Shown: positions 12,854 to 15,624 of the stretch, piece by piece | How positions within the stretch are numbered: position 1 is the first letter of the stretch | How the letters are laid out: every line of letters begins with the position of its first letter | NCBI RefSeq assembly: GCF_000336935.1 | Contig: NZ_AOME01000053.1 | Coordinates: 9,526 to 73,525, forward strand | Reading direction: 5' to 3' | Length of the DNA stretch: 64,000 bases | Origin: Halococcus salifodinae DSM 8989 | GTDB taxonomy: Archaea; Halobacteriota; Halobacteria; Halobacteriales; Halococcaceae | Made by a program: the position numbers and the translations under genes | Notes under the pieces: generated by a model | The model's database searches: none | The model's input: the letters and a program-made list of their open reading frames with translations, nothing else | Told to the model about the DNA's origin: nothing

Positions 12854-13051
12854 TCACGCGGTGATGTCGTCGATGCGTCGGGGTTCCCCCGACAGCGCCG
12901 GGTCGGGTTCGACGATCTGGAGCACTTCGTGGTCGGTGATCTCGGGATAGGGTTTGTCGACGGCGTCCTCGACGAGCGCGCGATCGAGCCGGAACTCCGT
13001 TCCCTCGTAGCTCACGTCGACACCCTCATCGTCGAACGATAGAACAGTCAT
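12854..13051 (-). CDS. DUF5800-type small haloarchaeal protein
   Basis: A 65-residue acidic protein, MTVLSFDDEGVDVSYEGTEF at the N-terminus and HEVLQIVEPDPALSGEPRRI near the end, matching a family restricted to haloarchaea (DUF5800 as I recall it). Function unknown; no membrane span or Cys. The start ATG at 13051 is the one that leaves the conserved N-terminus intact. It is divergent from the bactofilin-like gene. Confidence 0.75.
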   Translation of the reverse strand: MTVLSFDDEGVDVSYEGTEFRLDRALVEDAVDKPYPEITDHEVLQIVEPDPALSGEPRRIDDITA

Positions 13052-13130: not shown

Positions 13131-13137
13131 TTTATTA
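13131..13137 (+). promoter_or_regulatory. TATA element of the bactofilin-like gene
   Basis: TTTATTA preceded by a purine-rich BRE-like GATTGGA, centred 27 nt upstream of the GTG at 13161. It supports GTG as the start and a leaderless mRNA. Confidence 0.6.
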
Positions 13138-13160: not shown

Positions 13161-14435
13161 GTGTCGCTCCGCTCGGACCCGCTCGCCGCGCTCGTCGTCC
13201 CCGATGGCACCACCGTCGAGGAACACGCCATCGTGACCGAGACGGACGTCATCGTCGGCGCACAAAGCGAGATCGCACTCGGCGTCCGCGGCCGGAACGT
13301 GATCGCCGGCGAGCGCGTCACGATCGCCGGTGACGTCGAGGCCGAGGCTGACTGTCGTCTCGACACCTGGTGTGAGATCGGGGGGAACGTGCTCGCGGGC
13401 GCGGACGCCTACATCGGCGAGCGCGTCACCATCGACGGCCAGCTCGTGGTCGCCGGCGATCTCGACATCGGCGACGACGTCACGATCGAGGAGGGGTTCG
13501 ACGCCAACGGCTGGATCGTGATTCGCAACCCGGTCCCGACGCTCGTCTTCCTCTTCACCTATCTCACCCATCTCCTCCACATCGGCGAGGAGGACATGGC
13601 CGAAGACGTGGTCGCGGAGGTGTTCGACGAAGAGGAAGCAGAGCCGCTCGTGATCCCGCGCAACGCCGACGTGACCGACGACGCGTGGCGGGTCTCGACT
13701 CCGGCGGAGGTCGGGGCCGACTGTCGCCTCCACGGCAACCTCCGTGCGGCGTCGATCACGGTCGACGAGCGTAGTGAAGTGTTCGGCAGCCTCCGGGCGC
13801 GCGAGTCGATCGTGGTCGAGAGCGAAACGACGGTCCACGGCGACGTCACGACCCGTGGTGGCGCAGTCGAGGTCGCCGCCGACGCCCGGATCCGCGGCGA
13901 TATCGCGTGCGAACAGCTCCGTCTCCACGAAGGTGCGGTGGTCGAGGGCGCGATGCGCGCTCGCGGCGAGATGACCATCGTCCGCGAAGAAAACCCGCTC
14001 GCAATCGCTCCCGAATCGGACACCGAGACGGCTACCGGAGCCTCCGAAGCCGCCGAGGACCGATCGCCGTCGACCGAACCGGGTGCGGACGCCGAGGTGG
14101 AGGCGAGCGAGCCCGACGAACCGGCCGAGCCGACTGATGGCGCGGACCGAACTGACCTGATCCAGGCGATCGAACCGATCGACGCTCCCACAGCGAGCAC
14201 GGAACGCACCGCCGACGAGGAGGAATCGGAACCGTCGAACGAAGACGAATCGGCGGCGACAGACCACGGTGAAGCGAACGCGGCCGACGAGGAGCCATCG
14301 GAGCCGGTGATTCGGGAGGCCGAACCCGAGGCGAGCGAGTCCGCGGAACCGGCGGCGGACGATTCCGAGGGATCGGGAACGAGCGATCCGGAGGCATCCG
14401 AAGAACCGAAAGGCAGTTTCACACCGCCCGAGTAG
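13161..14435 (+). CDS. Bactofilin-like / polymer-forming beta-helix protein with acidic tail
   Basis: A 424-residue protein with two runs of right-handed beta-helix-like repeats: residues about 15-115 (TVEEHAIVTETDVIVGAQSE, then short GxxVxIxG-type rungs) and about 180-275 (CRLHGNLRAASITVDERSEV and following rungs). Between them lies a hydrophobic segment, VPTLVFLFTYLTHLLHIGEE, that could sit in or on the membrane. The last 140 residues are an extremely acidic, Ser/Glu/Asp-rich disordered tail. Such repeats are found in bactofilins and archaeal halofilins that polymerise beneath the membrane and affect cell shape; that role is inferred. The gene ends 7 nt before the GTPase gene. Confidence 0.75.
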   Translation: MSLRSDPLAALVVPDGTTVEEHAIVTETDVIVGAQSEIALGVRGRNVIAGERVTIAGDVEAEADCRLDTWCEIGGNVLAGADAYIGERVTIDGQLVVAGDLDIGDDVTIEEGFDANGWIVIRNPVPTLVFLFTYLTHLLHIGEEDMAEDVVAEVFDEEEAEPLVIPRNADVTDDAWRVSTPAEVGADCRLHGNLRAASITVDERSEVFGSLRARESIVVESETTVHGDVTTRGGAVEVAADARIRGDIACEQLRLHEGAVVEGAMRARGEMTIVREENPLAIAPESDTETATGASEAAEDRSPSTEPGADAEVEASEPDEPAEPTDGADRTDLIQAIEPIDAPTASTERTADEEESEPSNEDESAATDHGEANAADEEPSEPVIREAEPEASESAEPAADDSEGSGTSDPEASEEPKGSFTPPE

Positions 14436-14442
14436 GCGCGCC

Positions 14443-15624
14443 ATGCTCTCGCTCGCGCTCGCCGGCAAGCCGAACGCCGGCAAATCTACCTTTTTCGAGG
14501 CGGCGACCATGACCGAGGTCGACGTCGCCAACTACCCCTTCACGACGATCGACGCGAATCGCGGGGTCTCGTACGTGCGTACCGACTGCCCCTGTCTCGA
14601 CCGCGAGGAGCGCTGCGGCAACGAACACTGCCGCGACGGCAAGCGGTACGTCTCTGTCGAGCTCCTGGATGTCGCGGGGCTCGTCCCGGGCGCACACGAG
14701 GGACGGGGGCTGGGCAACCAGTTCCTCGACGAACTCACGACCGCCGACGTTATTTTGAACGTGGTCGACGCCTCCGGCGGGACGAACGCCGAGGGCGAGC
14801 CGGTCGAAGTCGGCGATCACGATCCCGTCGAAGACGTGGATTTCGTCGCGAGCGAGATCGAGCGATGGCTCGCGGGGATCGTGGCGCGCAACTGGGAGAC
14901 CGTCGAGCGCGGGTCGCGCTCGCCCGGCTTCGCGATCGACGACCACCTCGCGGAGCTGCTCTCGGGTGTGGGCGCGAACGAGCCGGCGATCGCGGCGACG
15001 CTACGCGCGCTCGACTATCCTGACGACCCGCGCGAGTGGACCGACGACGACCGCCTCGCGCTCGCCCGCGAGATTCGAGCGCGAACCAAACCCCTCGTCG
15101 TCGTGGCGAACAAAGCCGATGTCGCGCCCGAGGGCAACCTCGATTCGCTGGCCGCGGCCGCCGAGCGCGCGATCCCGGCGACCGCGGACGGCGAACGCGC
15201 GCTCCGGCGCGGGGCCGAGGCGGGCGTGATCGACTACGATCCCGGCGATAGCGAGTTCGCGGTCGGCGACGGCCTCTCGGCGAGCCAGCGTGCGGGACTC
15301 GAAACCGTCGAGGACGTCATCGAGGCGTACGGCGGGACCGGCATCCAGCGCGCGCTGAACGAGGCGGTGTACGACCTGCTCGATCACATTACTGTTTACC
15401 CGGTCCAGAACGAGTCGAAGTGGACCGACGGCCAAGGGAACACCCTCCCCGACGCCTTCCTCGTCCCCCGCGGATCGACGCCGCGCGACCTCGCCTTCGC
15501 AGTCCACTCGGACATCGGCGAGGGGTATCTCCACGCCGTGGACGCACGCTCGAACCGGGAGATCGGCGACGACCACGAACTCGCGGAGGGCGACGTGGTG
15601 AAGATCGTGAGCACCGCGAAGTGA
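14443..15624 (+). CDS. YchF-type Obg-family GTPase/ATPase with TGS domain
   Basis: Ribosome-associated nucleotide switch of 393 residues. G1 P-loop GKPNAGKST (8-16), G2 region NYPFTTIDAN, G3 DVAGLVPGAHEGRGLGNQFLDEL-type sequence with the Obg-like glycines (about 76-95), G4 NKAD (near 219), and a C-terminal TGS domain (about 315-390, DAFLVPRGSTPRDLAFAVH). A Cys-rich insert (CPCLDREERCGNEHC) follows the G2 loop; this insert is typical of the archaeal group. Whether it prefers ATP or GTP is not decided by the sequence seen. Tight spacing after the bactofilin-like gene suggests co-transcription. Confidence 0.9.
   Translation: MLSLALAGKPNAGKSTFFEAATMTEVDVANYPFTTIDANRGVSYVRTDCPCLDREERCGNEHCRDGKRYVSVELLDVAGLVPGAHEGRGLGNQFLDELTTADVILNVVDASGGTNAEGEPVEVGDHDPVEDVDFVASEIERWLAGIVARNWETVERGSRSPGFAIDDHLAELLSGVGANEPAIAATLRALDYPDDPREWTDDDRLALAREIRARTKPLVVVANKADVAPEGNLDSLAAAAERAIPATADGERALRRGAEAGVIDYDPGDSEFAVGDGLSASQRAGLETVEDVIEAYGGTGIQRALNEAVYDLLDHITVYPVQNESKWTDGQGNTLPDAFLVPRGSTPRDLAFAVHSDIGEGYLHAVDARSNREIGDDHELAEGDVVKIVSTAK

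What the first reader, a model, noticed from the sequence alone, without database searches (positions are those of the whole stretch)
13161..14435. Candidate cell-shape protein: two beta-helix blocks, a hydrophobic hinge and a 140-residue acidic tail
The layout resembles archaeal halofilins/bactofilins but differs: two repeat blocks are separated by a membrane-like segment (about residues 118-136), and the acidic tail is unusually long. It is transcribed with a YchF-type GTPase 7 nt downstream. The coupling of a polymer-former to a ribosome-linked switch is unexpected.
Basis: partly seen in the sequence, partly recalled or inferred. Interest (0 to 1): 0.5.

Follow-up and report, generated by a model that had tools for sequence, protein, structure and literature searches.

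The report
Haloarchaeal double-bactofilin cell-shape protein
The gene encodes a probable cytoskeleton protein, modelled as two bactofilin rods joined by a hydrophobic hinge, that most salt-loving archaea searched also carry; the GTPase gene behind it looks like an inherited neighbour with its own promoter rather than a partner.

Summary
The ORF, coordinates and layout are real. Both blocks model as bactofilin-type right-handed beta-helices: block 2 on BacA Z 14.1 (2.3 A, 102 residues), block 1 Z 12.4 (2.7 A, 102). The blocks align with each other (E 4e-7): an internal duplication. Left-handed hexapeptide enzymes fit only at about 11 A. The design is not unusual: 367 of 391 class genomes have a match, including 15 of 15 of a Haloferax-like genus. 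The core length is nearly fixed; the acidic tail is lineage-specific (52 of 67 genera lack it). Membership of the halofilin A family is likely but argued by elimination; the defining paper was not held. The GTPase is a YchF relative (PRK09602/YGR210-like), not YchF proper. It is downstream in 30 of 67 genera, within 60 nt in 10. Of 21 genomes where the gene is missing or nearly so, 19 keep the GTPase ortholog and 13 keep it divergent to DUF5800. The GTPase has its own promoter-like element (CGAAA at -39..-34 in 55 of 64 upstream regions), which in Halococcus lies inside the last bactofilin codons. The proposed coupling is not supported.

The parts
13161..14435 (+). double-bactofilin protein, 424 aa, GTG start (probable halofilin A ortholog)
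   Evidence: ORF; Bactofilin PF04519 51.5 bits, cut-off 27.9; match in 367 of 391 class genomes
13131..13137 (+). TATA-like TTTATTA at -30 to -24 from the GTG: own promoter, probably leaderless transcript
   Evidence: sequence; TTWAWW at -33..-25 in 61 of 82 distinct upstream regions, 0 of 82 in each of six control windows
13182..13523 (+). block 1, residues 8-121: beta-helix, modelled as right-handed and bactofilin-like
   Evidence: model pLDDT 91.8, pTM 0.85; BacA 2n3d Z 12.4, rmsd 2.7, 102 aligned
13536..13625 (+). hinge, residues 126-155: hydrophobic helix 126-140 and second helix 144-155
   Evidence: low confidence there; conserved motif around GWIVIRNPxPTxVFxF in 45 sequences
13638..13988 (+). 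block 2, residues 160-276: right-handed beta-helix, bactofilin
   Evidence: BacA 2n3d Z 14.1, rmsd 2.3, 102 aligned; TtBac 6ria Z 13.6, rmsd 1.5, 88 aligned; Pfam 45.7 bits alone
14004..14432 (+). acidic disordered tail, residues 282-424, lineage-specific
14405..14420 (+). ACCGAAAGGCAGTTTC, promoter-like element of the downstream GTPase gene, inside the last codons (PKGSF) of the bactofilin gene
   Evidence: CGAAA at -39..-34 before the GTPase in 55 of 64 distinct upstream regions; 15 of 19 where the bactofilin gene is missing or nearly so
14443..15624 (+). YchF-related GTPase (PRK09602/YGR210-like), neighbour
   Evidence: NF007171 562.6 bits, cut-off 387; TIGR00092 (YchF proper) 89 bits, below its cut-off of 279.2; PF08438
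12854..13051 (-). DUF5800 protein, 65 aa, divergent neighbour
   Evidence: PF19115 123.9 bits; divergent neighbour in 59 of 67 genera

Best explanation
It is a haloarchaeal cytoskeletal protein of the bactofilin superfamily, most probably the halofilin A family, built from two tandem right-handed beta-helix bactofilin domains joined by a conserved hydrophobic helical hinge. Likely working (inferred): the rods stack end to end into non-polar filaments without nucleotide, the hinge helix lies on or in the inner face of the membrane, and the filaments stabilise membrane curvature and shape. The acidic tail is a fast-changing solubilising or spacing extension that is not needed for the core function. 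The GTPase behind it is an inherited neighbour with its own promoter. Shown (by sequence and predicted models): fold assignment, duplication, distribution, tail variability, gene order, promoter-like elements. Inferred: polymerisation, membrane contact, shape role, lack of functional coupling.
For: Pfam Bactofilin over cut-off. Both blocks superpose on bactofilin BacA in predicted models; the block-2 profile finds bactofilins 6ria (E 3.6e-4) and 2n3d (E 4.8e-3) first and third in the PDB. Block 1 and block 2 align over 112 columns, E 4e-7. Mostly one match per genome across the class. The genus whose PCNA is 99.2% identical to PDB chain 3hi8 (recalled as the H. volcanii PCNA) has the ortholog in 15 of 15 genomes, beside a second, secreted multi-helix PF04519 family found in 10 of the same 15. 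Two halofilins, HalA and HalB, are published for H. volcanii (passages), so this family without a visible signal fits HalA by elimination. GTPase independence.
Against: The halofilin paper was not held, so identity with HalA was not tested against its sequence. Block 1 alone scores below the Bactofilin cut-off (17.6 bits) and above that of Hexapep (31.4 against 27); its handedness rests on a model from 7 sequences, was read from rmsd and not measured, and its BacA row (Z 12.4) is tied in Z with left-handed rows (Z 12.2 and 12.1) that fit at about 11 A. The two-block model has pTM 0.43, so the placement of the rods is unknown. Foldseek itself gave no hit at E of 0.001 or less. The core is very conserved, polar residues included, which an enzyme would also show. 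The GTPase is downstream in 30 of 67 genera, which looks like more than chance (not computed). Two genomes (G144, G241) lack the bactofilin, the GTPase ortholog and DUF5800 together, which would also fit a linked set, or an assembly gap.
Confidence: 0.72

Rival explanations
1. Functional pair: the polymer-former and the ribosome-linked GTPase form an operon, and the GTPase switches the polymer or ties it to translation.
For: GTPase 7 nt downstream in loci of genera g1 (Halococcus-like) and g3; same-strand downstream in 30 of 67 genera; two genomes lack both together (G144, G241).
Against: Only 10 of 67 genera within 60 nt; GTPase ortholog in 19 of 21 genomes in which the gene is missing or nearly so, 13 of them with it still beside DUF5800; conserved promoter-like element of its own in 55 of 64 upstream regions.
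Confidence: 0.08
2. A hexapeptide (left-handed beta-helix) acyl- or nucleotidyl-transferase relative, or a gamma-carbonic-anhydrase-like enzyme.
For: Block 1 passes the Hexapep cut-off alone (31.4 bits); profile hits to LpxA, LpxD, GlmU and carbonic anhydrases at E 0.002-0.08; strong conservation of polar residues.
Against: Models superpose on right-handed bactofilin at 1.5-2.7 A, on left-handed enzymes at about 11 A; H22 is replaced in 4 of 22 block-1 rows; one histidine, H191, is invariant in the 20 block-2 rows, which does not exclude a site.
Confidence: 0.07
3. A bactofilin-fold protein that does not polymerise but works as a membrane-bound scaffold or cap, the two rods closing on each other through the hinge.
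For: Two rods in one chain, high conservation, hinge of conserved sequence.
Against: Bactofilins that have been studied polymerise (passages); nothing here tests polymerisation.
Confidence: 0.13

Closest known systems
Halofilin A (HalA) of Haloferax volcanii
   Same: Haloarchaeal, bactofilin homology, no secretion signal seen by eye; one of two recurrent PF04519 families in the Haloferax-like genus
   Different: No sequence of HalA was available; the acidic tail is absent from the Haloferax-like ortholog measured (283 aa, L104)
Bactofilins BacA (2n3d) and TtBac (6ria)
   Same: Right-handed beta-helix; Z 14.1 and 13.6 for block 2, 12.4 for block 1 with BacA
   Different: Two domains in one chain; a hydrophobic element between the domains, where studied bacterial bactofilins use a short N-terminal membrane-targeting peptide (passages)
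PRK09602 / YGR210-like GTPases
   Same: Downstream gene: NF007171 and PF08438 over cut-off
   Different: Below the cut-off of YchF proper (TIGR00092)

Membership tests
Bactofilin (PF04519) | curated sequence cut-off | tested here: met
   51.5 bits against 27.9; block 2 alone 45.7 bits, block 1 alone 17.6 bits
Bactofilin (PF04519) | right-handed beta-helix of the bactofilin type | tested here: met
   predicted models only: BacA Z 14.1, 2.3 A for block 2; Z 12.4, 2.7 A for block 1
Bactofilin (PF04519) | nucleotide-free polymerisation into non-polar filaments | not testable with these tools
   needs purified protein
Bactofilin (PF04519) | membrane association | tested here: inconclusive
   conserved hydrophobic helix 126-140; Kyte-Doolittle 19-residue mean 1.27
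Halofilin A | orthology to the H. volcanii halA product | tested here: inconclusive
   Haloferax-like genus has this family in 15 of 15 and a secreted second family in 10 of 15; HalA sequence and paper not held
Halofilin A | accumulation at positive membrane curvature (review passage) | not testable with these tools
   needs microscopy
Hexapeptide acyltransferase | left-handed parallel beta-helix | tested here: inconclusive
   leans against: in predicted models left-handed enzymes fit at about 11 A, right-handed bactofilin at 1.5-2.7 A; but block 1 passes the Hexapep cut-off and handedness was not measured
Hexapeptide acyltransferase | conserved catalytic histidine in an inter-subunit site | tested here: inconclusive
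   H191 invariant in 20 block-2 rows, H22 replaced in 4 of 22 block-1 rows; no site could be modelled
YchF proper (downstream gene) | TIGR00092 cut-off | tested here: not met
   89 bits against 279.2

The most novel reading that the evidence does not exclude
A class-wide archaeal bactofilin design that differs from the bacterial one: two duplicated bactofilin rods in one chain with the membrane anchor between them, so each subunit could act as a hinged, curvature-sensing strut instead of a straight rod held by an N-terminal peptide.
Probability: 0.35. Interest if true: 0.45.

Novelty: new member of a known kind. Interest (0 to 1): 0.28.

Why it matters
It places an uncharacterised gene of a Halococcus-like genome in a widespread haloarchaeal cytoskeleton family, shows the family's probable two-rod architecture and which parts are dispensable, and shows that a suggestive gene pair and a 'conserved C-terminal peptide' can both arise around a promoter embedded in the end of the upstream gene.

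Tried and rejected
Unusual architecture: rejected, since the same core recurs across the class. Conserved C-terminal KGSF peptide as a binding motif: considered when the tails of the window's genus ended alike, rejected when the same DNA was found at about the same distance before the GTPase in genomes where it is non-coding. Operon coupling: rejected as above. Left-handed block 1: disfavoured on models only. That the genus lacking the gene (g37) is Haloferax: rejected by PCNA identity (g25 99.2%; two g37 genomes 82.6% and 84.2%). Plasmid search: no match. Direct Foldseek hits were weak; the bactofilin matches come from the realignment of Foldseek's own candidates. Text searches for HVO_1610 or HVO_1237 (recalled tags) found no paper, and for YchF with bactofilin and archaea none.

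Limits of the counts: one search scored 4 candidates per genome and its match list was cut. It left 24 genomes without a match, 20 of them named in the output; with G142 (a match at the limit, E 8e-4, counted among the 367), these 21 were re-searched with the block-1 profile, which matched only G142, partially. Of the 21, G144 and G241 have only a GTPase relative of about 45% identity and no DUF5800. One search used 45 sequences (L024, frame-changed in the tail, and L112, a duplicate of L027, were left out). One search used one unnamed locus per genus (67 genera) and left out the six named loci; downstream sequence seen ranged from about 2.2 to 6.7 kb, so absence of the GTPase means 'not within that stretch'; only GTPase hits over 55% identity were counted. 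The genomes overlap those. Alignments A3 and A4 kept 19 of 28 chosen unnamed loci, those with two motifs by exact match. One search left out duplicates; 13 of its 82 bactofilin starts show codons other than GTG or ATG, probably because the start was extrapolated from the alignment.

Full report
What is there. The ORF at 13161-14435 is real. It starts with GTG; a TATA-like TTTATTA lies at -30 to -24. In orthologs that arrangement recurs: TTWAWW at -33..-25 in 61 of 82 distinct upstream regions against 0 of 82 in each of six control windows, and GTG in 67 of 82, so a leaderless transcript is likely (inference; haloarchaeal promoter knowledge recalled). The window's own genome has one Bactofilin match.

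Fold. Pfam gives Bactofilin at 51.5 bits. AlphaFold2 on seven sequences gives block 1 (about 8-121), helices 126-140 and 144-155, block 2 (about 160-276) and a disordered tail; mean pLDDT 78.3, pTM 0.43. VIA-align puts block 2 on BacA 2n3d (Z 14.1, rmsd 2.3, 102 aligned) and TtBac 6ria (Z 13.6, rmsd 1.5, 88 aligned). Block 1 alone models at pLDDT 91.8, pTM 0.85; its first row is also BacA (Z 12.4, rmsd 2.7, 102 aligned), tied in Z with left-handed proteins that fit only at about 11 A, while other right-handed helices in the list fit at about 2.5-3.5 A. I read the 11 A as the wrong hand; handedness was not measured directly. Profile comparison aligns block 1 with block 2 over 112 columns at E 4e-7. 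The protein is therefore best read as a duplicated bactofilin. Against this: block 1 by sequence scores higher with Hexapep (31.4 bits, cut-off 27) than with Bactofilin (17.6, cut-off 27.9), and its profile finds hexapeptide enzymes in the PDB weakly and no bactofilin at E up to 0.1.

Distribution. A match is present in 18 of 18 family genomes, 367 of 391 class genomes, and 25 of 25 and 17 of 17 in two other families (overlapping samples). In 45 aligned sequences the core is 280-290 residues and tails range from 0 to 189. One locus per genus: 52 of 67 have at most 12 residues beyond 283, 15 have 34 or more.

Relation to halofilins. Genus g25 is Haloferax-like: the PCNA of one of its genomes is 99.2% identical to PDB 3hi8, which I recall as the H. 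volcanii protein; genomes of nine other genera (two genomes of g37, one of each other) were at 84.2% or less. All 15 g25 genomes have the ortholog. With PF04519, the recurring kinds are this family (283 residues in L104) and a secreted family with a signal-like N-terminus, a beta-helix and several C-terminal hydrophobic helices; the latter was found in 10 of 15, nine loci at 74-94% identity to the tenth, L148, and one of them cut by a contig end. A few further PF04519 proteins occur singly (L173, L174, L176). A review says halofilin A gathers at positive curvature in rods and halofilin B at negative curvature in disks (PMC12186497, passages). I recall from the abstract of Curtis et al. 2024 that HalB lies on the outer surface; the paper was not held. 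By elimination this family is HalA. That is an argument, not a test.

Gene neighbourhood. One locus per genus in 67 genera: DUF5800 divergent upstream in 59 (55 within 700 nt); the GTPase downstream on the same strand in 30, within 60 nt in 10. The 7-nt gap was seen only in genera g1 and g3 of the window's family. Of 21 genomes re-examined for lack of the bactofilin, 19 have the GTPase ortholog at 59-71% identity, and 13 keep DUF5800 and the GTPase as divergent neighbours 91-1282 nt apart. The other two, G144 and G241, have only a relative of about 45% and no DUF5800, so there the whole locus is missing or unassembled. One of the 19 and of the 13, G142, is borderline, with partial matches (E 8e-4, 1.7e-4) and other Bactofilin matches. 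The ancestral order is probably DUF5800 - bactofilin - GTPase, with loss of the middle gene in some genera (inference).

The GTPase promoter. In genus g1, 9 of 10 tails end in KGSF plus four residues, differing otherwise in length and sequence; the tenth (L005) changes frame; g3 ends with KDSF plus four. The DNA behind it, CGAAAGGCAGTTTC, recurs in similar form, non-coding, at about the same distance before the GTPase elsewhere. Its place fits a BRE/TATA-type promoter (recalled). In the window it is 14405-14420. So the shared C-terminal peptide is best explained as coding sequence running through the neighbour's promoter, and the GTPase can probably be transcribed without the bactofilin promoter. 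Read-through is not excluded.

The GTPase itself passes NF007171 (YchF-related, 562.6 bits) and the YGR210-like Pfam domain, and fails TIGR00092, YchF proper. 'Ribosome-linked switch' is knowledge about YchF relatives, not shown here.

Papers: PMC12186497, PMC11985538, PMC7617734 (reference list only), PMC12364344, PMC10869688, PMC13393453 and PMC12448750 were seen as passages only.

Verdict. A well-conserved member, and in its two-rod form possibly an instructive variant, of a known cytoskeletal family. The claimed coupling is not supported.

Noticed in passing
own genome G000, contigs C15, C28 (two) and C12: Four PCNA_N (PF00705) matches, against one or two in the ten other genomes searched.
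   Followed up: no
L148, L159, L171, L172: Second Bactofilin family in the Haloferax-like genus: signal-like N-terminus, beta-helix, several C-terminal hydrophobic helices; a candidate halofilin B type.
   Followed up: partly
L105, L121, L123, L127: Tails in four other genera end in a similar peptide (AIAEAEKR-like); possibly also an embedded DNA element.
   Followed up: no
L024, tail region up to 7032: Ortholog of a metagenome-assembled genome changes frame in the tail and stops early; may be an assembly error.
   Followed up: no
window 12854-13051: DUF5800, a 65-residue protein of unknown function, is a more constant neighbour of the bactofilin gene than the GTPase (59 against 30 of 67 genera) and sits divergent to the GTPase in 13 of 21 genomes where the bactofilin gene is missing or nearly so.
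   Followed up: partly
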